DNA of 52,616 bases. It comes from an uncultured Porphyromonadaceae bacterium. Its GTDB lineage: Bacteria > Bacteroidota > Bacteroidia > Bacteroidales > Muribaculaceae. The stretch spans positions 1-52,616 of the forward strand of contig CAMWNP010000018.1 in assembly GCA_947175645.1 (NCBI GenBank). The letters run 5' to 3'. A model generated the notes under the pieces. It saw only the letters and a list, made by a program, of their open reading frames with translations, searched no databases and had not been told where the DNA came from. The position numbers and the translations under genes were made by a program. Shown here piece after piece: positions 11,713 to 27,987 of the stretch (positions are counted from its first letter, which is position 1; each line of letters begins with the position of its first letter).

Positions 11713-12498
11713 ATGGAACTGAGAAAACAGGAATTGACAAGATACATACTCCCCATGCGTGAGGGAGGCTCCCTCCCCGGGCTGGCCGAGGCTGACGACG
11801 GTTTTCGCTACGTGGTAAAATTTCGCGGTGCCGGCCACGGAAGCAAAGCCCTGATTGCGGAACTTGTAGGCGGAATGGTGGCTAAATCACTCGGATTCAA
11901 AGTGCCGGAACTTGTATTTCTGAATGTGGACAGCCGCTTCGGAATTACCGAGCCTGATGAGGAAGTGCAGGATCTGTTGCGTGCAAGCGAAGGGCTCAAC
12001 TTAGGTCTGCATTTTCTTGACCGCTCCGTTGCCATGGATCCTTCCGTGAACCATGTCGACAACCTCACGGCGTCAAAGATTGTGTGGTTAGATGCATTTC
12101 TGACCAATGTTGACCGTACACGCCTGAACACCAATATGCTCATCTGGAATGGAGAACTGTGGCTCATTGACCACGGTGCCTCCCTCTATTTCCATCACTC
12201 ATGGCGTAACCTTGAAAAGGCTGCCCTTGACCCGTTTCCGTATATCCGTAACCATGCCTTGCTCGCTAATGCCACCCTACTGGAGGAGGCCGACAAACTG
12301 ATGCGCCAGGCCATAACTCCCCGTACACTTAACAAAATTGTCGATCTTATTCCCGACGAGTGGCTTATTGCCGAAGGAGACATGGAAAGCCCGGAGGAAA
12401 AGCGTGAGGTATACCGCAGATTCCTCACCGAGCGACTGAAATATTCATCCATCTTTGTTAAACAGGCCATCCATGAACGACAACTCCTTGGTCTATGA
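11713..12498 (+). CDS. HipA-like kinase (HipA_2 type), stand-alone
   Basis: The 261-residue protein resembles the kinase core of HipA but lacks the long N-terminal subdomain. VVKFRGAGHGSKALIAELVGG (residues 34-54) supplies the phosphate-binding Lys and loop; WLDAFLTNVDRTRLNTNML (125-143) matches the HipA catalytic loop, with Asp134 and Asn139; LIDHGA (151-156) stands where the metal-binding Asp is expected. No HipB-like antitoxin is adjacent; the next gene is DUF3037, which starts 26 bases before this stop. Pairing with DUF3037 is a recurring arrangement as I recall it, and the two probably act together. The phosphorylated target is unknown. Confidence 0.82.
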   Translation: MELRKQELTRYILPMREGGSLPGLAEADDGFRYVVKFRGAGHGSKALIAELVGGMVAKSLGFKVPELVFLNVDSRFGITEPDEEVQDLLRASEGLNLGLHFLDRSVAMDPSVNHVDNLTASKIVWLDAFLTNVDRTRLNTNMLIWNGELWLIDHGASLYFHHSWRNLEKAALDPFPYIRNHALLANATLLEEADKLMRQAITPRTLNKIVDLIPDEWLIAEGDMESPEEKREVYRRFLTERLKYSSIFVKQAIHERQLLGL

Positions 12499-12853
12499 GT
12501 ATGCAACGCTCCGTTATGTCCCTGACATAGAGCGTGAAGAATTCATCAACATTGGTTTGTTGATGATGTGTAAGCGTCGCCGCTGGTTCAGGTGTGAAAT
12601 CCATCTCGATGCCGACCGCCTGCACGCACTTGACCCATCGGCCGACTTGGATCTCATCAGCCGTCAGGTGCAGATGTTCCTGCCAGGCTCCAAGGCTCTC
12701 GCCGACTCTCCCGCAGAGGAGCGGTTCAGGTGGTTCACGGCTGTGAAGAGCGCCATGCTTCAGACCTCACGCCCGCACCCCGGTCTGCTCCAGGATGCGG
12801 CTGAACTTGACCCCACTTTTGAAAGACTATATAAAAGACTGGTTACAAAATGA
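12473..12853 (+). CDS. DUF3037 family protein
   Basis: The 126-residue product begins MNDNSLVYEYATLRYVPDIE; the ATG at 12473 is preferred because YEYATLRYVPD is the usual opening of the family, though an in-frame ATG at 12455 exists. EEFINIGLLMMCKRRRWF and LHALDPSADLDLISRQVQMF are further family-like stretches. The function is unknown. Its start lies inside the end of the HipA-like kinase gene and its stop overlaps the ZIP transporter start (ATGA at 12850), so the three are translationally coupled. No toxin or nuclease motif is visible. Confidence 0.8.
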   Translation: MNDNSLVYEYATLRYVPDIEREEFINIGLLMMCKRRRWFRCEIHLDADRLHALDPSADLDLISRQVQMFLPGSKALADSPAEERFRWFTAVKSAMLQTSRPHPGLLQDAAELDPTFERLYKRLVTK

Positions 12854-13661: not shown

Positions 13662-13692
13662 TTGGAGAACCACAACTTTTATAGTAACTTTG
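13662..13692 (+). promoter_or_regulatory. Bacteroidetes-type promoter of the KAP/helicase unit
   Basis: TTGG (13662-13665), 19 bases, then TAACTTTG (13685-13692) match the -33/-7 consensus. The ATG of the KAP gene follows 31 bases later. This makes the two genes a transcription unit of their own, separate from the ZIP transporter upstream. Confidence 0.75.
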
Positions 13693-13723
13693 CTAAAATA
13701 GTTTCATCCAAGCCGCATACACC

Positions 13724-15640
13724 ATGAACGATTATAAAAATTTTCCGAAAAAATCATCATTATCTGATACCCCCCTTGAACTTCCGAACAATGACTTCGG
13801 TACGGACAAATATGTGAAAGGGCTTGTCAACTTCATCGAACGTTCTGCCGCTCCTATTACCATCGCTCTCAAAGGAGAATGGGGAAGTGGAAAAACATCA
13901 CTAATGAACCGTCTGCATAATGACCTTTGTTCGGAAAACAAAAATTTCATAGGGGTAAAAATCAACACATGGGAATATTCCATGCTGGCGACTCCGGAGG
14001 AAACAGTGGTGAAAATCATAATCCAACTGGTCCGTTCGCTTTCCAATAATGATCCCAGCACCTCGGAAAAACTGAAGAACTTCACTAAAACGGCAATCAA
14101 CTTCGTGTATCGAGGCACACGTGAATGGGGTAAGAAACAGATTCCCTTTGCTGATTATGCCATAGAGGCTCTCGGGGTACCTACAGAGATTTTCTCAGGA
14201 CAGGGAACCCCTGAAAACATATCACTCTCGGATCTACGCATAGCGTTGACCAATGCCATTGCCAAAACGCTGAGTGAAAAAAATAAAAATGGTATAATCG
14301 TATTTGTCGATGACCTCGACCGTCTTAATCCACCCCTGGCGGTGCAGATTCTGGAACTGCTAAAAAACATCTTCACCCTCGACAACTGCATATTCATCCT
14401 TGCCATCGACTATGAGGTGGTAGTGAAAGGTCTGGAACCTAAGTACGGTCCGTACAAGCCGGAAAACGACCGGGAGTTCCGCTCCTTCTTCGACAAGATA
14501 ATTCAGGTGCCGTTCTCTCTTCCCGTTGGTAATTATGACCCGATCAATTTCGTCCTCGACTCACTGATGGAGATTGATTTCATCAATACCTCTGAACGCC
14601 ACATGACACGCTTCAAGCAGTCTATAGAAAAGATAGTCAATTATTCCGTGGGAAAGAATCCACGTGCCATAAAACGTCTGATCAACACACTCTCGCTGCT
14701 AAACTGCATATCACAATACTCGGATCAGAATCAGAACACTCCTGATTATAAGTTGATTAACTTTGCTATTGTATCATTGCAGGTGTGCTATCAGAAGATA
14801 TATGACATGCTGTCAATCAATCCCGACTTTGACCGTTGGGACGTTACCATAGCCGCGAAGTTGGGAGTGCACAACGCTGTTGATAGTGAAGAATTGAACG
14901 GTGATACCATCCTCGACGCTCTATGCGAAAAAGAGATCTTCTATGACCAGCACCACTCAGACATTCTCGGACTTATACGTATAATCAAAGAATGTGCTCT
15001 GGAGATTGACCGCAGTAACCCTGACAAGATAGTCCGGGATCTGATGAGGAGTTCATCGGTGACAAACGTGTCAAATTCGGAATCAGTGGGTTATAACAAC
15101 AGGGAAATCATCAACCGTCTGCATAGCAACGTTGCGACATTTATCAAACGTAACCGTCCTGAAATTGACCTGAAGCCGAAGCGAAACACCGGTAATGGCG
15201 GATTCATAATAACCTTGGACAATAACACTAAATCGCATGTAGTGTTCAGTCTGAGCGAGGATGAATTACTTACATTAGGAATAACACTGGGTGTGAAGAA
15301 CGGTCGGCCGGAACGCCTTGCCAATCAGCCATTTTCCATGGTTATGAATGACGATGCCGTTCAACAGGTGATTGAACCGATGCATCATGTAGTGAAAGAA
15401 TACACTTCATCAGGACTGATTCACCCCGTATCATTATTCAACGGTGAAACCTACACGGATATAGTGGAAGAATACAAAGTCCGTGAGGATGAATTATGGG
15501 ACTCCATCTCCGGTGATCTTTCCTACCGACTCAAAGTGAATTCTGTGACTGACTATGAGGACACTCGTATGGTCAGAACTATAAGCGACCTCATAATAGC
15601 CGCTTATGATATGAACAATCGTGCTTTGAAAATAAAGTAG
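13724..15640 (+). CDS. KAP-family P-loop NTPase
   Basis: The 638-residue protein carries a KAP NTPase domain. The opening LELPNNDFGTDKYVKGLVNFIE is the usual lead-in, GEWGSGKTSLMNRL (residues 51-64) is the Walker A loop, INTWEYS follows, and IIVFVDDLDRLNPPLAVQILELLK (191-214) holds Walker B and the sensor region. CIFILAIDYEVVVKGL completes the core. Many KAP proteins have membrane helices inserted between the Walker motifs; none is seen here, so it should be cytoplasmic. Residues 300-638 match nothing I know. It ends 13 bases before the giant helicase gene and shares its promoter. KAP NTPases occur in several anti-phage systems (for example QatA), so a regulatory or sensing ATPase role is a reasonable guess. 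Confidence 0.88.
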   Translation: MNDYKNFPKKSSLSDTPLELPNNDFGTDKYVKGLVNFIERSAAPITIALKGEWGSGKTSLMNRLHNDLCSENKNFIGVKINTWEYSMLATPEETVVKIIIQLVRSLSNNDPSTSEKLKNFTKTAINFVYRGTREWGKKQIPFADYAIEALGVPTEIFSGQGTPENISLSDLRIALTNAIAKTLSEKNKNGIIVFVDDLDRLNPPLAVQILELLKNIFTLDNCIFILAIDYEVVVKGLEPKYGPYKPENDREFRSFFDKIIQVPFSLPVGNYDPINFVLDSLMEIDFINTSERHMTRFKQSIEKIVNYSVGKNPRAIKRLINTLSLLNCISQYSDQNQNTPDYKLINFAIVSLQVCYQKIYDMLSINPDFDRWDVTIAAKLGVHNAVDSEELNGDTILDALCEKEIFYDQHHSDILGLIRIIKECALEIDRSNPDKIVRDLMRSSSVTNVSNSESVGYNNREIINRLHSNVATFIKRNRPEIDLKPKRNTGNGGFIITLDNNTKSHVVFSLSEDELLTLGITLGVKNGRPERLANQPFSMVMNDDAVQQVIEPMHHVVKEYTSSGLIHPVSLFNGETYTDIVEEYKVREDELWDSISGDLSYRLKVNSVTDYEDTRMVRTISDLIIAAYDMNNRALKIK

Positions 15641-15653
15641 CAATCATAAAGCA

Positions 15654-18600
15654 ATGTCATTCTGGCGAAAAATAATAGAAGGCTTCAAGAGCACTGAAAG
15701 TGAGACTGCTCCCACTGAAAGGAATGATTCCTTGGTAGAAGAACTGTCTGTCGCGCCTGGATCGGTAGAACTCGCCTACGTTGATGTTGAGGTTGGGAAT
15801 GATAGGAAAATCCATGACATAGGCGCACTTAAAGAGGATGGCTCGGAGTTTCACGAACCGGACAAAAACGGTCTGATGAAATTCCTTGACGGTACCGGGT
15901 ATTTATGTGGTCATAATATTGTCCATCATGACGTACAATATCTTTTAGGGAAAGAAGAAAAATCTCCGTGGACATTGGTTGACACCCTGTTTATGTCGCC
16001 TATTCTTTTTCCTGAGCGACCCTACCATCGGTTGGTGAAAGATTACAAACTGATCTCTGACCAGATGAACAATCCGCTGAATGACTGTAAACTGACCCGT
16101 GAATTACTTCATGACGAGATAAATAAATGGAACACGCTACCTGCAGAAATAAGGTTGATCTTTGCAACACTGCTAAAGGGTAAACCAGAATTCGAAGGAT
16201 TTCTCAGATTGGTAAAAGCAGAGTATGCCGTCAGCGAACTTACCCAACTTATACGAAAGCATTTCCATGGTAAGATTTGCAGTAACGCTGATATAGAAAC
16301 TATTATTGGCACCTGTTCCACCGAACTCACCTACGCTCTTGCTCTAATTGACACGGAACATAATTCCATCACTCCGGGATGGGTCCTGCACAACTACCCT
16401 CACGTAGAATACATTGTGAAGCAATTGCGTCTGACGCGGTGCAGCCAGGGGTGCGACTACTGTAACAAACAACTGGACACACACCGTAACCTGAAACTTT
16501 TTTTCGGTTACGATGAATTCAGGACATACGAAGGTGAACCTTTGCAGGAAAAGGCGGCTGAAGCGGCCGTCGGAGGAAAATCACTTTTAGCAGTTTTTCC
16601 AACCGGTGGAGGCAAGTCTCTTACTTTCCAATTGCCGGCACTTATGGCGAATCGTGCCGTACATGGACTGACGGTGGTAATATCACCTCTCCAATCACTT
16701 ATGAAGGATCAGGTTGATAATCTTGCGGACAGAGGTATAACAGAAGCCGTCACCATCAACGGATTGCTTGACCCTATAACCCGTGCGCTCTCCTTACAGC
16801 GAGTACAGGATGGTGAGGCATCATTATTATATATTGCCCCTGAAATGTTGCGTTCAAAAACCATTCAGCGCATACTGCAGACACGCAACGTCGTGCGGTT
16901 TGTCATTGACGAGGCTCACTGTTTTTCATCGTGGGGACAAGATTTCAGGGTGGATTATCTCTATATAGGCAAATTCATCCGTAAATTACAGAGTCTAAAG
17001 AAATCTAAACAGCCGATTGCCGTTTCATGTTTTACCGCGACAGCCAAACAAAAGGTTATACAGGACATATGCGATTATTTTCGGCGTGAGTTACACCTTG
17101 AACTGGAACTATTTGCTTCAGGTGCTTCGCGCTCAAACCTGCGTTACTCAGTAATTCATGTAGAAAATGAAAGTGAAAAATATTCACGTTTACGCGATTT
17201 AATATCAGTGGCTGACTGTCCCACGATAGTTTATGTATCCCGAACCAAACGCACCTTTGAACTTGCTGCTAAACTGAGCAAAGACGGATATCGAGCACTA
17301 CCGTTTAACGGTAAGATGGAGTCAGAAAAGAAAATAGCCAATCAAGAGGCTTTCATGAACGACAATGTCAGAATCATTGTGGCAACATCTGCTTTCGGAA
17401 TGGGTGTAGACAAAAGTGATGTGGGTTTGGTGGTGCATTACGACATATCCGATTCACTGGAAAACTACGTTCAGGAGGCGGGACGTGCGGGACGTGACCC
17501 ACGGTTGAACGCACGTTGCTTCGTGCTTTATTCCGATGATGACCTTGACAAACATTTCATACTTCTGAACCAAACCAAATTAAGTCTGAGTGAAATTCAA
17601 CAGGTATGGAAAGCGGTGAAAGATCTTACAAGGAAGCGTAACAACATAAGTTGCTCAGCATTGGAAATAGCACGTCAGGCAGGATGGGACGATTCTGTCT
17701 CTGATATTGAGACGCGTGTCAGAACAGCACTCTCGGCACTCGAGCAAAATGGATACATTGAACGTGGAGACAACATCCCTCATGTATATGCCACCGGAAT
17801 CTCTGTCAAAAATATTGACGAAGCGAGAAAGCGTATCTCGGAATCTGTGTTGTTTGAATCGGAAGAGATCGAAAATGCCGTCAGGATTATCAAATCACTG
17901 ATTTCTCAGAAATATATTGCCATGGCACAGGCTGATGAGGCTGAGTCTCGTGTGGACTATCTCGCTGATATCCTGGGTATGCAGAGAAAAGAGGTCGTAT
18001 CCGTTGTAACACGTATGAGACAGGAAGGAATCCTTGCTGACAACCGTGAAATATCAGCCTATCTTTCTGATGCCGGTGACTCAGAAAGAAAATCAAATAC
18101 GCTGCTCGAACGGTTTGCTCGCCTTGAACGTTTCATACTGAATCATATTCCTGACGAATCCCTGCGTATTTCGTGCAAGCAATTTAATGAAAATGCGGTA
18201 AATGATGGCATTACAACTTCGCGTGAAAAAGATATCCGAACTCTGATTTATTTTCTTACTGTTACAGGCTACACCCATAAAACTGAAGATTCCGGACATA
18301 ATCTGGAACTTAAACGTCAGGCTGACATGGAGGTAATTCTGCGGCGTTTTGAAAAGCGTCTTGAAATATGCCGCTTCGCCTTGCCATGGCTTTATAAAAT
18401 GACTGCCGACGCGGTGCCGGGAACGGCAATTCAGTTCTCTATCGTTGAACTCCTCAACGATATTAATAAGGAAAACCACACCATATTTGGCATCACCGAT
18501 GACATTCGACTGGAAGATGTTGAGGAAGCGCTCCTTTACATGTCAAAGATTGGCGCCCTTAAACTTGAAGGTGGTTTCCTTGTGTTGTATAACGCTATGA

Positions 18601-20531
18601 ACATCACACGTTTGAAAGACTCAAAATTCAGTTTCAAACATGATGATTACCGAACATTGGATGAATTCTATAAGTTAAAAATACAGCAGATTCATATTGT
18701 GGGTGAGTATGCGAACCTTATGGTGAAAAACTATGAAGCAGCATTACAGTATGTCAAGGATTATTTCGGTATGGATTACCGCAAATTCGTATTGAAGTAT
18801 TTCAAAGGTACGCGATTAAATGACATTAAACGTAACGTCACCCCTCACAAGTATAATCAGTTGTTCGGGCTATTGTCACCACGACAGAAAGAGATTATTT
18901 CTGACAACACCTCTCGTTGTATAGTGGTGGCTGCTGGTCCCGGTAGCGGCAAAACCAGGGTGCTGGTTCATAAACTCGCATCTTTGCTCCTGCTTGAAGA
19001 TGTCAAGCACGAGCAACTGCTGATGCTGACATTCTCTCGCTCCGCAGCCACGGAATTCAAGCAACGACTTATAGGTCTGATAGGTAATGCTGCACACTTC
19101 GTGGAAATTAAGACTTTTCACTCCTACTGTTTTGACCTTCTTGGACGTATTGGTAATTTGGATGAAGCAAAAAATGTTGTGGCATCAGCCGCAAAAATGA
19201 TAAGCGAAGGAGAAGTTGAGCCAAACAAAATAGGAAAGACGGTGATTGTCATTGATGAAGCCCAGGATATGGGAGAAAATGAATATGCCCTTGTCTCTGC
19301 CCTGAAGGACAATAATGAGGAGATGCGAATCATTGCTGTTGGCGACGATGACCAGAACATATTTGAATTTCGCGGTTCTGACTCAAAATTCCTTTTTCAA
19401 CTGTCACGGCAGCCAGGGAGCAGATTGATTGAGATGACTGAGAATTATCGCAGTGCCCGGCACCCGGTTGTTTTTGCCAACGCATTCCTGAAAACTCTTG
19501 AAAAGAGATTAAAGTCTAATCCCGTCATATCCATGAGTGATGAAGATGGCAAGGTGGAGGTGACGCATTATAAAACTGATAATATATGTAAGCCGTTGGT
19601 TGATCATATTTTGCAAAACAGAACCGATAGGACTACGTGCGTACTCACTCAGACTAACAATGAGGCGGCAACGGTTGTGGCTTTACTGCGCAGAAATGGA
19701 GTGAACAGTAAACTCATTCAGTCAATGGATGGCTTCCAGTTCCGCAATTTGATGGAGATACGCTTCTTCACTAAGTATCTCGACAACCGTGTTGACTCAC
19801 CATGCATTTCTGACACTTTATGGGAAGAAGCGATTAAGGAGACTAAACATATTTACAAGCGCAGTTCGGCATTGGGGTACTTTGAACGATGCGTGGCTCA
19901 GTTCAGGAAAATAAACCGCAGTTTATATCTCAATGATTTCAAGGAATTTGTCAATGAATCATCAGTTGAGGATTTTTGTGATTTGACAGGCACGGAGGTG
20001 GTGGTGTCAACAATTCACAAGGCCAAAGGTCGAGAATTTGATGATGTGTATATGCTGATTTCAGATAAATATAAACTGGATGACAAACTAAAACGCCGAT
20101 ATTACGTAGGTCTGACACGAGCCAAGAAGCACCTTTATATCCATACTAACAGTAACTATTTCAATAATTTACCTGCCGACAACTATCACCATGATGCCTC
20201 TGACTATCCTCCACCGGAGGAAATCATGCTGCAGATGTCAATGAAAGATGTTTACTTAGGCTTTTTTAGAGACCGAAAGAAGGATGTGCTTTCCCTCAGG
20301 GGTGGAGACAGGCTGATATACAAGGATGGACTGTTGTTTGTCAACGGTGTCACAAATGCCGTAGGCTGCCTTTCTACAAAGATGAAAGAAGAACTTGCCG
20401 ACTGGCATAACAAAGGATATACAGTAACATCATCATCGGTGCAGTTTATTGTAGCCTGGAAACCAAAAGATGCACCCAGAGAAGAACCTGAAACCGCAAT
20501 ACTCCTGGCCAACCTTGTTCTAAACAGATAG
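15654..20531 (+). CDS. DEDD exonuclease - RecQ-like helicase - UvrD-like helicase fusion
   Basis: The 1625-residue protein joins three enzymes. (1) Residues about 40-155 form a DnaQ-like 3'-5' exonuclease: YVDVEVG (Asp44, Glu46), CGHNIVHHD (Asn88, Asp93) and NNPLNDCKLTREL (Asp144); Asn replaces the usual His of the last motif. (2) C263, C267 and C270 (CSQGCDYC) hint at a metal site. Residues 300-640 form a RecQ-type SF2 helicase: PTGGGKS (316-322), DEAH (419-422), FGMGVDKSDV and QEAGRAGR (607-614). (3) Residues about 1074-1510 form a UvrD/Rep-type SF1A helicase: GPGSGKT (1095-1101), DEAQ (1201-1204), ENYRS, HKAKGREFDDV (from 1455) and YVGLTRAKKHL. Residues 660-1070 look like winged-helix and helical linkers. 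It probably unwinds and trims DNA with the KAP NTPase encoded 13 bases upstream. Confidence 0.9.
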   Translation: MSFWRKIIEGFKSTESETAPTERNDSLVEELSVAPGSVELAYVDVEVGNDRKIHDIGALKEDGSEFHEPDKNGLMKFLDGTGYLCGHNIVHHDVQYLLGKEEKSPWTLVDTLFMSPILFPERPYHRLVKDYKLISDQMNNPLNDCKLTRELLHDEINKWNTLPAEIRLIFATLLKGKPEFEGFLRLVKAEYAVSELTQLIRKHFHGKICSNADIETIIGTCSTELTYALALIDTEHNSITPGWVLHNYPHVEYIVKQLRLTRCSQGCDYCNKQLDTHRNLKLFFGYDEFRTYEGEPLQEKAAEAAVGGKSLLAVFPTGGGKSLTFQLPALMANRAVHGLTVVISPLQSLMKDQVDNLADRGITEAVTINGLLDPITRALSLQRVQDGEASLLYIAPEMLRSKTIQRILQTRNVVRFVIDEAHCFSSWGQDFRVDYLYIGKFIRKLQSLKKSKQPIAVSCFTATAKQKVIQDICDYFRRELHLELELFASGASRSNLRYSVIHVENESEKYSRLRDLISVADCPTIVYVSRTKRTFELAAKLSKDGYRALPFNGKMESEKKIANQEAFMNDNVRIIVATSAFGMGVDKSDVGLVVHYDISDSLENYVQEAGRAGRDPRLNARCFVLYSDDDLDKHFILLNQTKLSLSEIQQVWKAVKDLTRKRNNISCSALEIARQAGWDDSVSDIETRVRTALSALEQNGYIERGDNIPHVYATGISVKNIDEARKRISESVLFESEEIENAVRIIKSLISQKYIAMAQADEAESRVDYLADILGMQRKEVVSVVTRMRQEGILADNREISAYLSDAGDSERKSNTLLERFARLERFILNHIPDESLRISCKQFNENAVNDGITTSREKDIRTLIYFLTVTGYTHKTEDSGHNLELKRQADMEVILRRFEKRLEICRFALPWLYKMTADAVPGTAIQFSIVELLNDINKENHTIFGITDDIRLEDVEEALLYMSKIGALKLEGGFLVLYNAMNITRLKDSKFSFKHDDYRTLDEFYKLKIQQIHIVGEYANLMVKNYEAALQYVKDYFGMDYRKFVLKYFKGTRLNDIKRNVTPHKYNQLFGLLSPRQKEIISDNTSRCIVVAAGPGSGKTRVLVHKLASLLLLEDVKHEQLLMLTFSRSAATEFKQRLIGLIGNAAHFVEIKTFHSYCFDLLGRIGNLDEAKNVVASAAKMISEGEVEPNKIGKTVIVIDEAQDMGENEYALVSALKDNNEEMRIIAVGDDDQNIFEFRGSDSKFLFQLSRQPGSRLIEMTENYRSARHPVVFANAFLKTLEKRLKSNPVISMSDEDGKVEVTHYKTDNICKPLVDHILQNRTDRTTCVLTQTNNEAATVVALLRRNGVNSKLIQSMDGFQFRNLMEIRFFTKYLDNRVDSPCISDTLWEEAIKETKHIYKRSSALGYFERCVAQFRKINRSLYLNDFKEFVNESSVEDFCDLTGTEVVVSTIHKAKGREFDDVYMLISDKYKLDDKLKRRYYVGLTRAKKHLYIHTNSNYFNNLPADNYHHDASDYPPPEEIMLQMSMKDVYLGFFRDRKKDVLSLRGGDRLIYKDGLLFVNGVTNAVGCLSTKMKEELADWHNKGYTVTSSSVQFIVAWKPKDAPREEPETAILLANLVLNR

Positions 20532-20718: not shown

Positions 20719-20749
20719 TTGGCTGACAAATTAAAAATAATTAACTTTG
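20719..20749 (+). promoter_or_regulatory. Bacteroidetes-type promoter of the secreted-protein cluster
   Basis: TTGG (20719-20722), 19 bases, then TAACTTTG (20742-20749). The box overlaps the TTG at 20747 that would otherwise open the long reading frame, which rules out that start and supports the ATG at 20777. Confidence 0.75.
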
Positions 20750-20776
20750 CCGAAATATTTTTACAGTATACTGAAA

Positions 20777-22957
20777 ATGAAGAACATCTACCAATCAATT
20801 ATCACTATGGTGCTGGCGGCCGGAAGCGTCTTTTCTGCAGCCGCGGTAACAGGCCATACTGATTTCGATCTATCAAAATTCCGTTATAAAACTGACTCCA
20901 GATCAGTTTTCAGTAACAAAAAAGCGCAGAGAACCTTTGCCATCAATAATATGATCGAGCAAAAGTCCGCTCTGTCAAAAGCAACGGAAGCGGAGCAGCC
21001 CGCTCCTTTCATATCGTTTCCCGCTTCAGACCAGACCGGAAATATCGACGCCCCTAACGGTGAACTCTGGTACTACACCGGAAACTTCGAATATCTCGAG
21101 ATTCCACCCCACGACAATGTGATGTTCACGGACCGGATTCTTCAGAACTACACATTTAAAATATATAACTCAAAGATGGAACTGATCGGCACTATCAAGG
21201 ATAAGATGGATTATGCCGATAATGAAGTCAGGGTACCTAGTTGTGAAATTACCCCTGTAGCAACCAGAAACTTCTTCAATACTGATGACAAAATTGAGAT
21301 AATTATTTCTCTGGCGGTAAACAGAGATGGTGGAGGTAATAATTATCGTTCTGTAGTTTACGCTCTCAACGGAGAAAAAGATGCTGATGGTGACGATGTT
21401 CCCGTAATGATCATGGATGATCTTGTTGGTGACGTAATCGAAGGCCCTGCAACAGGCGACAGCGACAATTTCTACATCACATTCATGTCAGACGTCTATG
21501 AAGATGTGGCAGAGGATGCACCCTTCTGGGATTATCTAATGGCCCAGAAAGCAGCCGTCACTATTTATGGCAAAGCATTGGACGACAAGGGGCCACGAGT
21601 AATCTACGAAACGGTAATCCCCTTGATGCAGTTCCCCGGAAATCAGGAAGACATCGGTCCGATGATCTCCATGCGTCGTGGCGATGATGTCATCTATTCA
21701 ATCTCATATTATAAACTCCCGTTCTACAACAGGTATGATAATCCAATGAGCGATGACATGACTCAGCGTGAAGGAAACAGTCTGATCATCGACCTTTATA
21801 AAGCATCGGAGTCAGGGCTTACAAAATTCTCCACCACGGAAATCCCGGTTGTCCTGGATCCCATGCCCAATTCTGACGGCGACCCCACATGTCTGTTCTC
21901 ATATTTCAGCGTAGGAAACCTGCTCTACTCTGGTGACTTTCTATATGATGCTCCCGGAGCCTCCGCAAACGCGCCTGACTTTATCATCACCCGTGGAAAC
22001 TACCAGGTTTCAACCGATGGTATCATTGACTCATACTTTACTTACAAAAACGACGGGTCACTGAAGAACACACTGTTCAAATATGCCGACGGAACTATTT
22101 CATTAGGAAATCTGAAAGGTTACGAGCCTCAGCAAATGTTTGTTTCAGCAGATGCATACGGTTATCTCTATAATTTCGTAGATCTATATTCCGGGAAAAA
22201 AGCAGTAACGATAGAAGCTGATTACTATTATGATGATGATTCCGATCCTGAACTTCTGACAGCCAATGTTGCCAGATATACTGATGGTGACAACTACAAA
22301 TATGTATTTGAACTTCGCTATCCTCTCGTAGATGACGATGAAAACGACATCCTGAGGTTCATGCATATCACCGCCGACGGAAAATTTGACCATACTGATA
22401 ATGTAAATATGGGCAAAGGGGTTGCTTACGCACAGAGTTTTCTGTCAACGGAAGCCGTGGCGCCACACGCTTATTCGATTTCTGACACCCCCACCTACAT
22501 GTTTCTTGTCAAAAGGGGCGTTGAATCTTCAGATGTCATGGAAGAAGAACTCATGATAGCAGAGGCTCAGTCCGAGGAGAACCCTGAAGGTAAGACCCTT
22601 CTGCAACTCGGACCGAACGAAAACGGCACACTCGCGTCCATCTACCCGGAATTCGCCACAGAAGACAACTCCGGACGCCTTTTCATTTACTACGGCAACA
22701 CTGTCACCTCAAAATATGTCCTCGACATCTACGAACTTCCCATCAACGCCGAAGATGGGGTTGACACCATTGAAGATGATGAAGCAGGAATCAGCATGAA
22801 GAACGGAGTGGTGAAATCCAACGGTAAAATTCATGTGTTCACCCTCGACGGACGTCATGCAGCCACTGCCGACGGGCATTTCAATACCGGATCTCTGCAA
22901 CCGGGAATGTATATTATCGCAACTTGTGGAAAAGCATTCAAGGTATTAGTAAAATAA
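20777..22957 (+). CDS. secreted protein of unknown function with T9SS-type C-terminal tail
   Basis: With the ATG at 20777 (MKNIYQSIITMVLAAGSVFS) the product is 726 residues and opens with a signal peptide ending near AAAVTG. The middle is an acidic, beta-rich domain I do not recognise, with many Asp/Asn/Tyr-rich turns and a WYYTGNFEYLEIPP stretch near residue 100. The last ~60 residues (IHVFTLDGRHAA, then LQPGMYIIATCGKAFKVLVK) have the pattern of a T9SS type A sorting domain: a strand-G-R unit, then G-x-Y-I-I and a Lys-rich end. It is probably secreted or anchored on the cell surface. The next gene starts 30 bases on and is likely co-transcribed. Confidence 0.8.
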   Translation: MKNIYQSIITMVLAAGSVFSAAAVTGHTDFDLSKFRYKTDSRSVFSNKKAQRTFAINNMIEQKSALSKATEAEQPAPFISFPASDQTGNIDAPNGELWYYTGNFEYLEIPPHDNVMFTDRILQNYTFKIYNSKMELIGTIKDKMDYADNEVRVPSCEITPVATRNFFNTDDKIEIIISLAVNRDGGGNNYRSVVYALNGEKDADGDDVPVMIMDDLVGDVIEGPATGDSDNFYITFMSDVYEDVAEDAPFWDYLMAQKAAVTIYGKALDDKGPRVIYETVIPLMQFPGNQEDIGPMISMRRGDDVIYSISYYKLPFYNRYDNPMSDDMTQREGNSLIIDLYKASESGLTKFSTTEIPVVLDPMPNSDGDPTCLFSYFSVGNLLYSGDFLYDAPGASANAPDFIITRGNYQVSTDGIIDSYFTYKNDGSLKNTLFKYADGTISLGNLKGYEPQQMFVSADAYGYLYNFVDLYSGKKAVTIEADYYYDDDSDPELLTANVARYTDGDNYKYVFELRYPLVDDDENDILRFMHITADGKFDHTDNVNMGKGVAYAQSFLSTEAVAPHAYSISDTPTYMFLVKRGVESSDVMEEELMIAEAQSEENPEGKTLLQLGPNENGTLASIYPEFATEDNSGRLFIYYGNTVTSKYVLDIYELPINAEDGVDTIEDDEAGISMKNGVVKSNGKIHVFTLDGRHAATADGHFNTGSLQPGMYIIATCGKAFKVLVK

Positions 22958-22987
22958 GCCAATCAATTTCACTAAATATAAAAAACA

Positions 22988-25900
22988 ATGAAAAAAATCT
23001 ACGCTTTTTGTCTTTTACTGACAATGTTGCTCTTCACAAGCAACAAGGCGTCCGCTCTTTCTACTACGATCGAGTGGGACATTCCCGGGTCAGTAATGCT
23101 CAAGACTGGCAGCACATCAGAACCTTTCGTGGATCTGTCATCTGACCAGACTTCCTACACTTTCAATACAACGGAAACCTATGGCTCCATTTATATCTAT
23201 GCAGCCGATGGCTACACCCTTATTGACGCAGAGACCACCGACGGTGCCTCAAAATACATACCAAGCACATGGGCAAACCCGCATTTCATCAATATATATG
23301 CGAGTTTAGGAAATGGCATGGATGGAAAAACCGTTAAAGTAAACTGCATCAAAACCGAACGGAATGACTCTTTCAACATCAACGTCATCAACGGTCTTGA
23401 CTATCTTAAAGCCTCTTTCGCTTCCGGTTATGAACTGTCACTTAAGGAAGGTGAGAACGCCTACATGTTCAATCCTCTCATCGACGGGAATCTTACAATC
23501 AATCTTGTTGGTATCAACAATGCTTACAGTGTGACCCTTGATGGTGAACCGGTAGAGAAATATCCTTATGGCGCACGCTACGACGATATTAAGATTGCAA
23601 ATGGAAGTAACCTTGCTATACAAGTGTTCGAGAGTGAAGCAGACATCCCCAAAGATTGCAGTTTCACCATTGAATATGGCGAGGGTATGAACGGATGTAT
23701 AACCAACATCTATAACCGGACAACCGGAAATTTCTCATATCCGAAAGATTTTGTCAACAACACCACCGTATTCAAAGGTGGCTCAACGATCAAAATCAAC
23801 ATTAATGTCGATGACTACACTGTCACAGCAGTTTATCTCAACGATGAAGACATCACTGACAAATATATCTATTCCAACAGCAGTTTCGGCAAGAGCGGCT
23901 ACATTGAAATAGATGTCCCTAATGATTCTCAGGCAACTCTGAAAATTGAGGGAACTGCAGTTAAATATGACGATATTGAATTCACCGGATATATCTCTGG
24001 TGCCGAAGGCGTTGAATTCAGTTACACCTACAGCGGTGATGCCATAACACTTCCTGCAGGTGAATCCTTCAGCGGTGAATACACCATAGGTGCCTTTACC
24101 CTCAACTCAGAGAATGCTGAAAAGTTCATCATCCCCGTATCTGAAAAAATCGGCAAGATATTCTTCCGTCCCAAACAGGGCTACTACATCGCCGAACTCT
24201 ACACTCAGTTAGGCAACGCTGCTGCAGAACAGCACAGCGGAACTTCTTCAATCTTCCCCAATTCTGACGGAACAACCTTCTATATGGTTGTAAAAGAACT
24301 TCCCGCAACATATTCTTTCAACGTAACCACTACAGGTTCTACCTACAACGGCCGACTCATCCTGAATCCTCAGGTTTCAAACTGGGGTAACCCCGATGGT
24401 TCGGTAACCCGACTCACTGAAGGTGAGAAAACATTCTCATTCATACCTGTTTATCAAACACCTCTGACTGTATCCGTTCAGGGTAGTGACAACATCAGTC
24501 CTGCCGTTTACCTTGACGGGGCACCTCTTACAAGTTTCTTAAATTCTGAAAGCGGTGCTACAGAATTCTCTTTCGAACCTTATTACCCGACAGAAGGCTC
24601 ACTGGTTGCAGAAGGTGTGAAATCTGATGTCAAGGTTTACCTCTCAACCGCCCGTCCAACAATGTCAGGTGCCTCACTCGTTGTTGAAGATGGTCTCGAA
24701 GCCGGATTCTTCTACAGCGCTGCCCGTCACAACGCTAATCCTGACGGCCAGACACTTATCTCCGGCACTCAGATGATTGTCAAACCGGCAAGTGCTAACG
24801 TGCAGGTCAAATACAAGGATGAAACAGTATCTCTCGATGAAAACGGCGAATTCGTATTCACCGTAACCGGCAACGCACGCAACAACATTGTTACGGTTTC
24901 TGCCGCAAGCGAACCCGTGAAATATGCCGACATGCTCGTCAACCCTGAAGATGGAGCCACAGTCAAATCACTGTCTGCCATCAAGGTAACCCTTCCGGTA
25001 ATTGACCCCAACTATGAGTCAATGCTTGACTACAACGAAGAAGTTCTTCCTCAGGTGGTTGTCAAGAAAGGTGAGGAAGTAGTTGCTACATTCGGTGAAC
25101 TCGGCGATCCTGCTGAAGATGCGGAAGGCAACATGATAGTATCCATAATATTGTCAGCCCCCGTTACCGAAGCCGGCGAATACACCATTGACATTCCTGA
25201 AAAAGCATTCGTTCAGAAAGCATGGAGCGAAGCAGATGATGCTATGATGCCCGTCAGCGGCGGCTTCGTAACCCCTGCTTTCAATGGTAAAGTGACCGTT
25301 GATCCCACAATGATTTCTATCTGCGATGACTATACTCTTGATCCCGTTTCAGGTTCAAAAGTCGAGAGCATCGAAGAAGTGAAGATCTCATTCAACAAAA
25401 TTTCTTCAGAAGAATATTTCAGCGGTTGGGAATTCCAGAACGCAACATTCACCAACGGCGAACAGACCGTTCAGGCCATCGTTAATTACGACTGGACCGG
25501 AGAATCTGAAAATCGCGTCATGAAAGTGACTCCTGTTGATGAAGAGGAAGAGCCTGCGGCTATCACAGCAGCCGGAACATGGACCATGACCATCGCAGCC
25601 GGAACATTCACCTACCAGGGCGAATCAAACGGTGAAATCACCGCCGAGTACACCATCGAGGCTCCCGTTGAGGACAAAGTTGCCGACATGATTGTATCTC
25701 CCGCCGACGGTGCAACCGTAAAATCACTCTCTGTCATCAAAATCACTCTCCCCGTAGTTGATCCCAACTTTGAAACCATGCTTGATGTTAACGAAGAGGT
25801 TCTTCCTCAGTTGGCAGTCAAGAAAGGTGAGGAAGTAGTCGCAACATTCGGTGAACTCGGCGATCCTTCTGCCGATGACGAAGGCAACACCATCGTTCCC

Positions 25901-27871
25901 ATCTATCTCTCTGAAGCAATCACCGAAGCTGGTGAATACACCATTGACATCCCTGCAAAAGCCTTTGTTGAAAAAGGATGGAGCGAGGCTGACGATGCAA
26001 TGATGCCCGTTGCAGGTGGTTATGTGACTCCCGCTTATGCAGGAACCGTTACAGTTGACCCCTCTATGATCTCTATCTGCGACGACTACTCCCTCGATCC
26101 CGTTGCCGGCTCTGAAGTTGAATCTATCGAAGTTGTGAAGGTTACTTTCAACAAAATATCATCAGAAGAATACTTCAACGGATGGGAATTCCAGAACGCT
26201 ACATTCACTAACGGCGACCAGACCTTCCAGGCTATCGTCAACTACGACTGGATGAGCGAGAGCGAAAACCGCATCATGACAGTAACTCCTGTTGATGAAG
26301 CGGAAGAACCTGTTGCTATTACCGCTGCCGGCAAGTGGACAATGACCATCGCCGCAGGCACATTCAACTATCAGGGTGAATCAAACGGCGAGATCTCAGC
26401 CGAGTACACCGTCGTGGCAAACACTCCCGCCTACACCATCACTCCCGAGCCCGGAACCACAGTTGACAATCTGGCTGAAATCAAGATCGAGTTCACTGAT
26501 GCAACCGAAATTGAATACAATGAAATTCCCGTCACCCTCAAAGGTTCGGAATACAATGCATCAACAACTGATGTTCTTGGCGTAGGCAACAGCCGTACCG
26601 CTTATTTCCGCAACCCCACTGTCGACGGAGAATACACCGTAACCTTCCCCGCCGGCGCATTCACCATTGACGGCAAGGAAAGCGAAGAAGTGACCGCAAC
26701 CTACACATTCAAGAGTTCTTACGTTCTCACTCCCGAGTCAGGAAGCACCCTTGAAAAATTCGAAGTTGCCATCGCATTCCCCAATGCAACTGAAGTGGCA
26801 CTTGTTGGTGACCTCTCATCAATCCTTCTCACTAACAACCACTCTTATGCATCACCGACCATGAACTGTGTGAAAGATGAAAATGCTTCAGTTCCCACAT
26901 TCATCCTCACCATCCCCGAAAGCGCTCAGCAACCCCCGGTTGGCTCTTACAACCTCATTATCGAAGAGGGCGTATTCCAGATCGACGGTAAACCCAGCGT
27001 TGCAATCTACGCTGACTACAATATCGATCATGAAGTAAGCACCGAGTACACCCTCACTCCTGAAAATGGTGTGATCGTTTACGAAGACTGGGGTTATACT
27101 TTCGCATTCATCTTTGATGAGGCCGCTACCCTTTCACGTCCTGACGCTTCAAAAATCGAACTTACATTTGACGGAGAAACCATCCCCGCTGCCTCTTATG
27201 AGACAGGAGTTGAAATGAACATGCTGATGTTCATGGTGTTCGACTCCAACTATTGCAAGGATGGCGTTATCAAAGCCAACATCGCTGAAGGTGCGTTCAA
27301 GATCGGTAAAACCAACTGCCCCGCAATCCAGGCAGAATGGACCCTGACAGCGCCCAAGTCATTTGAAGCAAGCGTAACTCCCGCAGAAAATGACTCCGAT
27401 AATAAGATTGCTTCTATTGAAACCGTAATCCTTCAGTTCCCCGAAGCAACCTCAGGTGAAGTCTACAATGAATATGGCGCATCACTCCGCTCAAATGACT
27501 ACTCTTACTTTGAAACAGGAGTGATTAAGAAAGAGGAAACTGCCGATCTGCTCGCCGAGGGTGAAGCCAAAGGTGTTACATTCTCTATCACATTCAAGAA
27601 AACCACCGATGCCGGAACATATAATCTTAATGTTAGAGAAGGCACATTCGTTCTTGACGGTGTTCACAACTCTCCTGAACTTAACGCAACTTACTATGTT
27701 GACCCCGTAGGTTCAGGTATTGAGGGTATTTTCGCTGATGAAAACGGCAATGTGACAGTTTACAGCATTGACGGTCGAATCATCATTGACAATGCTCCCG
27801 CAGCAGAAATCAAAACCCTCAAGAAAGGTGTGATCTACATCATCAACGGCAAGAAAGTGGTTCTGAAATAA
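22988..27871 (+). CDS. giant secreted beta-rich repeat protein with T9SS-type tail
   Basis: The 1627-residue product begins with a signal peptide (IYAFCLLLTMLLFTSNKASA). Two successive 252-residue modules, from about residues 647 and 899, are near copies; each opens with a D/P-DGATVKSL...IK(V/I)TLP strand, carries EEVLPQ(V/L)(V/A)VKKGEEVVATFGELGDP and ends before a conserved EFQNATFTNG...YQGESNGEI part. Shorter related modules (TPEPGTTVDNL, TPESGSTLEKF, TPENGVIVYED) follow, so the protein is a string of Ig-like or bacterial adhesin-like domains. The tail (VTVYSIDGRIII, then LKKGVIYIINGKKVVLK) fits T9SS sorting. It is probably a surface or adhesion protein. No enzymatic motif is visible. Confidence 0.78.
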   Translation: MKKIYAFCLLLTMLLFTSNKASALSTTIEWDIPGSVMLKTGSTSEPFVDLSSDQTSYTFNTTETYGSIYIYAADGYTLIDAETTDGASKYIPSTWANPHFINIYASLGNGMDGKTVKVNCIKTERNDSFNINVINGLDYLKASFASGYELSLKEGENAYMFNPLIDGNLTINLVGINNAYSVTLDGEPVEKYPYGARYDDIKIANGSNLAIQVFESEADIPKDCSFTIEYGEGMNGCITNIYNRTTGNFSYPKDFVNNTTVFKGGSTIKININVDDYTVTAVYLNDEDITDKYIYSNSSFGKSGYIEIDVPNDSQATLKIEGTAVKYDDIEFTGYISGAEGVEFSYTYSGDAITLPAGESFSGEYTIGAFTLNSENAEKFIIPVSEKIGKIFFRPKQGYYIAELYTQLGNAAAEQHSGTSSIFPNSDGTTFYMVVKELPATYSFNVTTTGSTYNGRLILNPQVSNWGNPDGSVTRLTEGEKTFSFIPVYQTPLTVSVQGSDNISPAVYLDGAPLTSFLNSESGATEFSFEPYYPTEGSLVAEGVKSDVKVYLSTARPTMSGASLVVEDGLEAGFFYSAARHNANPDGQTLISGTQMIVKPASANVQVKYKDETVSLDENGEFVFTVTGNARNNIVTVSAASEPVKYADMLVNPEDGATVKSLSAIKVTLPVIDPNYESMLDYNEEVLPQVVVKKGEEVVATFGELGDPAEDAEGNMIVSIILSAPVTEAGEYTIDIPEKAFVQKAWSEADDAMMPVSGGFVTPAFNGKVTVDPTMISICDDYTLDPVSGSKVESIEEVKISFNKISSEEYFSGWEFQNATFTNGEQTVQAIVNYDWTGESENRVMKVTPVDEEEEPAAITAAGTWTMTIAAGTFTYQGESNGEITAEYTIEAPVEDKVADMIVSPADGATVKSLSVIKITLPVVDPNFETMLDVNEEVLPQLAVKKGEEVVATFGELGDPSADDEGNTIVPIYLSEAITEAGEYTIDIPAKAFVEKGWSEADDAMMPVAGGYVTPAYAGTVTVDPSMISICDDYSLDPVAGSEVESIEVVKVTFNKISSEEYFNGWEFQNATFTNGDQTFQAIVNYDWMSESENRIMTVTPVDEAEEPVAITAAGKWTMTIAAGTFNYQGESNGEISAEYTVVANTPAYTITPEPGTTVDNLAEIKIEFTDATEIEYNEIPVTLKGSEYNASTTDVLGVGNSRTAYFRNPTVDGEYTVTFPAGAFTIDGKESEEVTATYTFKSSYVLTPESGSTLEKFEVAIAFPNATEVALVGDLSSILLTNNHSYASPTMNCVKDENASVPTFILTIPESAQQPPVGSYNLIIEEGVFQIDGKPSVAIYADYNIDHEVSTEYTLTPENGVIVYEDWGYTFAFIFDEAATLSRPDASKIELTFDGETIPAASYETGVEMNMLMFMVFDSNYCKDGVIKANIAEGAFKIGKTNCPAIQAEWTLTAPKSFEASVTPAENDSDNKIASIETVILQFPEATSGEVYNEYGASLRSNDYSYFETGVIKKEETADLLAEGEAKGVTFSITFKKTTDAGTYNLNVREGTFVLDGVHNSPELNATYYVDPVGSGIEGIFADENGNVTVYSIDGRIIIDNAPAAEIKTLKKGVIYIINGKKVVLK
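24926..26425 (+). repeat. tandem 756-bp duplication inside the giant secreted gene
   Basis: Unit 1 runs from 24926 to 25681 and unit 2 from 25682 to about 26425; both open with GCCGACATG and stay in register, codon by codon, for about 250 residues. Long shared stretches (for example the block encoding KKGEEVVATFGELGDP) differ mainly at third positions, so the copy is not very recent. The copies could recombine and change the number of modules. Confidence 0.85.
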
Positions 27872-27910
27872 TCTCAGAATGACATTCTGCCCCATCTGAT
27901 AGACTGACAA

Positions 27911-27947
27911 GGAGGCTGTGTCAAGGGTTCTTTCCGGCACAGTCTCC
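27911..27947 (+). terminator. hairpin between the giant protein and the C10 protease genes
   Basis: GGAGGCTGTG (27911-27920) and CACAGTCTCC (27938-27947) form a 10-bp stem with one wobble pair. The sequence after it (TGCAGTTTGTCC) has only a short T stretch, so it may be a leaky terminator that lowers expression of the protease gene. Confidence 0.5.
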
Positions 27948-27987
27948 TGCAGTTTGTCCGATGACTTACAAAAAACCTTAAAAAACT

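What the first reader, a model, noticed from the sequence alone, without database searches (positions are those of the whole stretch)
13662..20531. KAP NTPase plus exonuclease-RecQ-UvrD megaprotein as a candidate uncharacterised DNA-processing or defence system
Seen: one promoter drives two genes 13 bases apart. The first is a soluble KAP-type P-loop NTPase with a long unrecognised C-terminal half. The second is a 1625-residue protein that combines a DEDD exonuclease, an SF2 RecQ-like helicase and an SF1 UvrD-like helicase. Known: KAP NTPases, RecQ helicases and UvrD helicases each occur in anti-phage systems. Inference: the KAP protein senses or gates, and the fusion unwinds and degrades DNA. 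I do not recall a described system with this exact pair; the novelty is a guess until searched.
Basis: partly seen in the sequence, partly recalled or inferred. Interest (0 to 1): 0.8.

Follow-up and report, generated by a model that had tools for sequence, protein, structure and literature searches.

The report
Roaming exonuclease RecQ UvrD fusion protein
A very large gut-bacterial protein that joins a DNA-trimming enzyme to two DNA-unwinding motors is, in the genomes searched, a free-standing gene that moves between bacteria, and the neighbouring gene that looked like its partner was found beside it only in this lineage; what the protein does is still untested.

Summary
In detail: KAP NTPase (13724-15640) and a 1625-aa exonuclease-RecQ-UvrD protein (15654-20531), 13 bases apart. 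The two-gene "system" is not supported. None of 116 other fusion loci (six are repeats) carries this KAP gene; one congener has KAP followed by a broken fusion start. Elsewhere the fusion is solitary and usually has its own promoter-like motif (48 of 79, shuffled mean 8.7). Relatives of this KAP sit beside other genes, in 3 of 6 cases two GmrSD-type genes.

The fusion is a coherent family without known function: 15 of 395 genomes of the phylum, full-length relatives in three phyla, DEDD acids and Walker lysines conserved, plus a conserved four-cysteine site. Comparison with DnaK shows horizontal transfer. The defence link is suggestive only: markers near 10 fusion loci against 1 in controls (p 0.04; 0.18 without four loci already seen), and 0 of 44 matches of one methyltransferase family within 20 kb.

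Best reading: an accessory, mobile DNA-end-processing nuclease-helicase, perhaps against mobile DNA, that came to lie behind a KAP gene in one lineage.

The parts
13685..13692 (+). TAnnTTTG promoter-like motif (TAACTTTG) upstream of the KAP gene
   Evidence: consensus recalled; no matching -33 element seen
13724..15640 (+). KAP-type P-loop NTPase gene, 638 aa
13805..14701 (+). KAP NTPase domain (residues 28-326; Walker A GEWGSGKT at 51, Walker B IVFVDDLDR at 192)
   Evidence: Pfam PF07693; motifs
14714..15637 (+). unassigned, fast-diverging C-terminal half of KAP (26-33% identity to five family relatives against 54-61% in the N half; 84% against 87% to the congener)
15641..15653 (+). 13-base gap between the two genes
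15654..20531 (+). exonuclease-RecQ-UvrD fusion gene, 1625 aa
15771..16358 (+). DEDD-type exonuclease domain (residues 40-235; D44, E46, D93, D144; N139 where DEDDh/DEDDy enzymes have His/Tyr; H125 conserved)
   Evidence: hhalign; alignments; AF2 model
16278..16280 (+). C209, putative first ligand of a four-Cys metal site
   Evidence: 92 of 93 rows; lost together with C267 and C270 in L133
16440..16463 (+). C263-x3-C267-x2-C270 cluster between exonuclease and RecQ core
16491..17684 (+). RecQ-type SF2 helicase core (residues 280-677; K321, DEAH at 419)
17685..18872 (+). middle region, mostly helical in the model; only sub-threshold helix-turn-helix matches (HTH_Crp_2 E 0.0015) and no RQC or HRDC match at E<=0.1
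18873..20165 (+). UvrD/PcrA-type SF1 helicase (residues 1074-1504; K1100, DEAQD at 1201)
20166..20528 (+). C-terminal beta-rich domain, unassigned (no match to HIRAN in a weak profile test)

Best explanation
The unit is the fusion gene alone: an accessory, horizontally moving DNA-end-processing machine. Shown: conserved catalytic residues of three engines on one chain, solitary occurrence, patchy distribution, transfer between families. Inferred: it loads on a 3' end or fork of linear or stalled DNA; the RecQ and UvrD motors (both 3'-to-5' in their families, recalled) pull and unwind, and the DEDD domain trims the 3' strand, with the four-cysteine site bracing the exonuclease to the RecQ motor. 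The likeliest purpose is to destroy incoming or replicating mobile DNA; repair of stalled forks is a close second. In this lineage the gene lies behind a KAP gene and has no promoter-like motif of its own, so KAP is at most a lineage-specific co-expressed NTPase.
For: D44 and E46 in 92 of 93 rows (in the other, L069, my ORF call starts after them), D93, H125, D144, K321, D419, E420, K1100 in 93 of 93; rows include repeated species. Exonuclease profile match; RecQ and UvrD folds in AF2 models. Solitary: no neighbour family in more than 12 of 97 loci. Patchy: 17 of 150 family genomes and 15 of 395 phylum genomes, the window's own counted in both. Horizontal: congeners G083/G099 have DnaK 98.7% but fusion 77.0%, while G099 and G500 of another family have DnaK 75.7% and fusion 76.0%; host families interleave on the tree, 42 changes against a least possible 10. 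Own promoter-like motif elsewhere, 48 of 79 against shuffled mean 8.7 and maximum 17. Relatives on plasmid records of Bacteroidales, Campylobacterota, Proteobacteria and Cyanobacteria. Some copies beside restriction genes.
Against: Defence link is weak: none of 44 N6_N4_Mtase match rows in 28 fusion-bearing genomes lies within 20 kb of the fusion (this family misses type I methylases and MAG contigs are broken); flank test p 0.037, and 0.18 once four loci seen beforehand are left out; nearest-neighbour PADLOC scan no richer than control by its commonest family (3 of 129 against 3 of 128), though 138 against 54 families were matched. Fusion and DnaK identities correlate (Spearman 0.74 in 136 pairs) and host families cluster more than shuffled labels do (42 changes against a mean of 56.8), so part of the inheritance is vertical. 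DnaK lies nearby in 12 of 97 loci. No activity is tested; the usual general-base position holds Asn.
Confidence: 0.5

Rival explanations
1. Accessory DNA-repair or replication-stress enzyme, like bacterial DinG (DEDD exonuclease plus helicase) or eukaryotic WRN (exonuclease plus RecQ): it clears blocked forks, R-loops or 3' flaps.
For: Same kinds of parts; B. subtilis DinG joins a DEDD 3'-5' exonuclease to a helicase and acts in replication stress (PMC12525004, abstract and outline seen); several nearest neighbours are ordinary metabolic or transport genes (top 25 of 114 families shown); partial correlation with DnaK.
Against: Rare and patchy rather than near-universal; moves between families; published Bacteroidetes SOS motifs are not enriched upstream: CTAA-N5-TTAG 0 of 79, GGA-N5-TCC 3 of 79, GGA-N5-TTC 3 of 79, shuffled means 0.5, 1.9 and 2.9 (motifs from passages of PMC8565304).
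Confidence: 0.3
2. The KAP protein and the fusion form one two-gene defence system, KAP sensing or gating, the fusion degrading DNA.
For: 13-base gap and no separate promoter-like motif before the fusion in the window; a congener keeps KAP with a piece of the fusion start (35 residues, 57% identity) behind it and the same upstream genes; KAP relatives pair with GmrSD-type genes; a HipA_2/DUF3037-like pair matching the candidate PDC-M66 lies just upstream.
Against: KAP is absent beside 116 other fusion loci; in the congener the fusion is broken while KAP is intact; among 150 family genomes only the window's has both.
Confidence: 0.12
3. A gene serving mobile elements themselves (plasmid, conjugative element or phage): processing element DNA or countering host nucleases.
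For: On plasmid records, once next to parAB; one IMG/VR contig with phage-like genes (gene names by eye).
Against: No phage record holds 80% of it; the IMG/VR scan, which finds close relatives only, gave one contig.
Confidence: 0.08

Closest known systems
RecQ family helicases (TIGR00614)
   Same: SF2 core scores above the subfamily cut-off (269.6 against 219.8 bits); AF2 model closest to RECQL5 and bacterial RecQ
   Different: far below the RecQ equivalog cut-off (308.9 against 640.2 bits); no RQC or HRDC match; fused exonuclease and UvrD
WRN (Werner helicase)
   Same: N-terminal DEDD-type exonuclease followed by a RecQ core (recalled)
   Different: bacterial, second SF1 motor added, Asn rather than Tyr at the fifth catalytic position (WRN as DEDDy is recalled)
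DinG of B. subtilis
   Same: DEDD exonuclease plus helicase on one chain (PMC12525004, abstract and outline)
   Different: XPD-like helicase instead of RecQ plus UvrD
RNase H-like cluster F.14 (PMC3985635)
   Same: a published cluster of RNase H-like exonuclease domains that comprises RecQ helicases (passages seen); may include this family
   Different: the passages seen do not mention UvrD, a KAP partner or a function for them; membership of this protein not tested
Gabija GajB and AdnAB/AddAB/RecBCD
   Same: UvrD-type motor with nuclease (Foldseek matches to GajB, AdnB, AddA, RecB)
   Different: no GajA beside it in the window and a DEDD instead of a PD-(D/E)XK nuclease; single polypeptide
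KAP NTPases PifA, QatA, PDC-S20
   Same: KAP NTPase domain (PADLOC E 7.9e-28, 7.3e-21, 1.4e-26; best stretches within residues 14-363)
   Different: C-terminal half not matched; QatA equivalog cut-off 600, score 79

Membership tests
RecQ family (TIGR00614 subfamily) | score above curated cut-off | tested here: met
   269.6 against 219.8 bits
RecQ equivalog (TIGR01389) | score above curated cut-off | tested here: not met
   308.9 against 640.2 bits
UvrD-like SF1 helicase | PF00580 and PF13361 above gathering scores, Walker lysine | tested here: met
   116 and 60.5 bits against 23 and 25.6; K1100 in 93 of 93
DEDD exonuclease | four acidic residues in three motifs and RNase H-like order of strands and helices | tested here: met
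   Pfam itself finds no exonuclease in the window protein
DEDDh or DEDDy subtype | His or Tyr before the last Asp | tested here: not met
   Asn (N139) five residues before D144, invariant in 65 rows of A1 and at least 90% of A5; conserved H125 lies elsewhere; which residue acts as base is open
KAP NTPase | PF07693 above gathering score | tested here: met
   150.9 against 20 bits
Qat system | QatA equivalog plus QatBCD | tested here: not met
   79.1 against 600 bits; neighbours in the window are other families
Gabija | GajA TOPRIM nuclease beside GajB | tested here: not met
   no such Pfam match in the ten window neighbours scanned; only the UvrD part matches GajB models
Dpd system (DpdF) | DpdF equivalog | tested here: not met
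   210.8 against 550 bits
Conserved two-gene KAP-fusion system | the two genes adjacent in distant taxa | tested here: not met
   0 of 116 other loci
Anti-phage defence system | clusters with defence genes | tested here: inconclusive
Anti-phage defence system | protects against phage | not testable with these tools
   needs plating assays

The most novel reading that the evidence does not exclude
The fusion founds a single-gene immune nuclease-helicase family, a 'WRN plus UvrD' machine with a cysteine metal site that ties exonuclease to motor, and this KAP NTPase subfamily (host family probably Muribaculaceae) is a swappable regulator plugged into different effectors: GmrSD pairs, a WYL-linked gene, or this fusion.
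Probability: 0.2. Interest if true: 0.65.

Novelty: new variant of a known kind. Interest (0 to 1): 0.42.

Why it matters
A protein that carries three DNA-processing engines on one chain, found full length in three phyla, in about 4% of sampled genomes of its own phylum, and passed between families, is a good candidate for a stand-alone function for which my searches found no test. The correction matters too: experiments should start with the fusion alone, not with the KAP pair. If it is immune, it would show how a repair-type machine is turned against mobile DNA; if it is repair, it would be an optional repair enzyme of gut Bacteroidales.

Tried and rejected
Fixed KAP-fusion system: rejected. 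Gabija, Qat and Dpd membership: rejected on cut-offs or missing partners. HIRAN for the C-terminal domain: no match, but only three sequences in the profile. SOS control: published motifs not enriched upstream. Clean empty site in the genus: none found; the ZIP gene is followed by other genes in the three other congeners whose flank I fetched. Close relatives in IMG/VR: one contig for the fusion, none for KAP.

PADLOC and Pfam on nearest neighbours: of 552 neighbour ORFs of at least 120 aa within 6 kb, 138 were chosen (nearest on each side) and 129 scanned, nine left out to fit the residue cap or because they overlapped others; controls 128 of 130. Only the top 25 families are shown, so totals per protein are not known. 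The first methyltransferase pattern was faulty and missed true cases; it was corrected. In the final count of ten against one I left out by eye two L087 ORFs and the control ORF in L296 as chance matches, and kept L301 as a real control hit. Six fusion contigs occur in both flank sets, so the 1.545 Mb is slightly too large.

Literature: ten searches, open-licence papers only; only part of the papers found were listed. None of the titles and abstract starts listed describes the three-domain fusion or the pair. Passages were seen in PMC3985635, PMC10952713, PMC8565304, PMC9122126, PMC13055991, PMC9519451 and PMC9122601; abstract and outline of PMC12525004; no paper was read whole.

Full report
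What is there. Two ORFs stand in tandem: a 638-aa KAP NTPase (13724-15640) and a 1625-aa protein (15654-20531), 13 bases apart. KAP belongs to PF07693, with Walker A at residue 51 and Walker B at 192, and shows no membrane stretch beyond one weak hydropathy window. The large protein has a RecQ-type SF2 core (280-677) and a UvrD-type SF1 core (1074-1504), both above curated cut-offs for their broad families. AF2 models agree: residues 1-700 (mean pLDDT 82.8) match RECQL5 and bacterial RecQ, residues 640-1625 (77.9) match PcrA, UvrD and Rep, then AdnB and GajB.

The exonuclease. Pfam and a PDB sequence search find no exonuclease with the single sequence. A profile of 32 relatives gives 12 weak PDB matches (E 0.045 to 0.96), eight of them titled exodeoxyribonuclease III, DnaQ, PolC, DEDDh or Cas2-DEDDh; the other four are unrelated names. 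The same profile aligns with DnaQ/RNase T-like proteins of related genomes at 96.2% probability, P 2e-9, against 0.3% and 0.8% for DnaK and KAP controls. D44 and E46 are kept in 92 of 93 aligned rows (my ORF call for the other starts after them), D93, H125 and D144 in 93 of 93. The position five before the last Asp is Asn (N139), not the His or Tyr that names DEDDh or DEDDy, so subtype and general base are open.

A conserved detail. C209, C267 and C270 are present in 92 of 93 rows and C263 in 93; in the Aliarcobacter protein C209, C267 and C270 are gone together. This suggests one metal site (zinc or iron-sulphur) made of one distant cysteine and a Cx3Cx2C cluster between exonuclease and RecQ. 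It is an inference from conservation. The C-terminal 120 residues form a beta-rich domain that I could not assign.

The pair is not conserved. In one search, 135 relatives of the fusion were confirmed and the best 80 kept; 16 more came from family genomes, so 96 other fusion loci were examined, 93 of them with at least 300 nt upstream. Fourteen phylum-level loci, five plasmid loci and one viral contig make 116; six contigs occur twice, by equal contig lengths, so 110 are distinct. None has the KAP gene. KAP occurs in 11 of 150 family genomes (E<=1e-20) and the fusion in 17 of 150 (E<=1e-100); the genome handles are the same, and only the window's genome has both. A sample of 393 genomes of the order gave KAP at E<=1e-100 in the window's genome only. 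One congener, G134 (a 76% complete MAG), keeps KAP at 85% identity with the same upstream genes, followed by a piece of the fusion start (35 residues, 57% identity) and then sequence without a match up to the contig end. The simplest reading is that the pair is older than the split of the two species and that the fusion then decayed while KAP stayed intact; an assembly fault is not excluded.

What KAP pairs with elsewhere. Of six full-length family relatives, three are followed by two GmrSD-type genes (L119, L121, L123), one by an unknown gene and a WYL-domain gene (L122), one by a recF-like gene (L120, named by eye), and one by the broken fusion. The other KAP matches in the family are partial or at contig ends. 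The C-terminal half of KAP diverges faster than the NTPase half.

The fusion as a gene on its own. The commonest neighbour family is DnaK, in 12 of 97 loci; the next reach 10, 9 and 9. Upstream of 79 testable relatives (start placed by a simple rule), 48 have TAnnTTTG within about 200 nt, against a shuffled mean of 8.7 and maximum of 17; the rows are related, so this is not a probability. In the window the motif stands before KAP and not before the fusion. A monocistronic gene that came to lie behind KAP, or lost its own promoter there, would explain this.

It moves. The fusion is in 17 of 150 family genomes and 15 of 395 phylum genomes, the window's own included; the matches are near full length in 14 of 17 and 15 of 15. 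Of 24 plasmid records with a match, two are Bacteroidales (69%) and 22 others have 27-35% identity; six cover at least 80% of the protein, from Bacteroidota, Campylobacterota and Proteobacteria; cyanobacterial records cover up to 77%. Host families interleave on the tree (42 changes, least possible 10), yet cluster more than shuffled labels (mean 56.8); many host names are MAG labels. G083 and G099, of one genus, share DnaK at 98.7% but fusions at 77.0%; G099 and G500, of different families, have 75.7% and 76.0%. The overall correlation of 0.74 shows that vertical descent also counts.

Defence? Against: in 28 fusion-bearing genomes none of 44 N6_N4_Mtase match rows lies within 20 kb of the fusion, the nearest being about 46 kb away. 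That family misses type I methylases, and MAG contigs are broken. Neutral: nearest neighbours scanned with PADLOC show no family beyond 3 of 129, controls 3 of 128, with 138 against 54 families matched in all; SLFN_AlbA_2 is the commonest Pfam neighbour, 5 of 129. For: by eye, L013, L014, L019 and L029, among eight loci that I listed, have restriction-modification or Wadjet-like genes nearby. A marker search finds such genes near ten fusion loci (7 of 80 GTDB loci, 3 of 27 genomes) in 1.545 Mb of flank against one of 58 control windows in 0.972 Mb from fusion-bearing genomes; p is 0.037, or 0.18 if the four loci that I had already seen are left out. Control windows were taken on long contigs, which favours core genome. 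I call this inconclusive.

Mechanism. Two motors that both run 3' to 5' in their families (recalled), and an exonuclease expected to act on 3' ends, point to a machine that enters at a 3' end or fork, unwinds and trims. Shown: residues and predicted folds. Inferred: polarity, substrate, coordination, purpose. Use against mobile DNA is slightly favoured over repair because of rarity, turnover and mobility; the margin is small.

Known or new. [quoted passage not shown] A 2014 classification lists a cluster (F.14) of RNase H-like domains that comprises RecQ helicases (PMC3985635, passages), which may include this domain. I found no description of the three-domain protein, its cysteine site, its mobility or the KAP pair in the ten searches named in Tried and rejected, within their capped lists. 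I file it as a new variant of known helicase-nuclease kinds.

Noticed in passing
window 11713-12853: A HipA_2-like kinase gene and a small gene downstream match the PADLOC candidate pair PDC-M66A/B (E 3e-21 and 1.3e-11; DUF3037 is my own label), just upstream of the ZIP gene and KAP; same order kept in congener G134 (L118).
   Followed up: partly
L119, L121, L123: KAP NTPase followed by two GmrSD_N genes; in L119 and L123 also preceded by a 126-aa zinc-finger-like gene, which occurs in L122 too: a candidate KAP-GmrSD defence cassette (only the L119 copy of the small gene was scanned).
   Followed up: partly
L136 and L013:15375-19767: A fusion copy followed by what look like the same AlbA_2 piece, two DNA methyltransferase genes and a putative restriction gene, in an IMG/VR contig with phage-like genes and on a Bacteroides sp. 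contig; in L136 the match begins at fusion residue 165 (names by eye).
   Followed up: partly
12 of 97 fusion loci (two are one contig), and window 30738-32651: dnaK is the commonest neighbour family: opposite strand in 12 of 12, downstream in 11 of 12; the label changes 12 times on the tree for 12 labelled rows, window included. The stretch downstream of dnaK may be an insertion hotspot.
   Followed up: partly
G000:C28:16646-18439 and L202, L203, L206, L211, L212, L214: Separate proteins of about 880 aa join a UvrD-like helicase to an RNase_T exonuclease in the same and related genomes.
   Followed up: no
L118, L009, L104: Broken or partial fusion copies: only a piece of the start in G134, an interrupted N-terminus in the closest relative L009, a short piece in G042.
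   Followed up: partly
window 20747-30534: A 736-aa and a 1627-aa protein without Pfam match at E<=0.001, then a C10 peptidase with a Spi inhibitor domain.
   Followed up: no
L084, L085: Two loci titled Lachnoclostridium and Clostridium MAGs carry close relatives of Bacteroidales fusions (64% and 68%); L084 groups with Bacteroidales on the tree. Probably mis-binned contigs.
   Followed up: no
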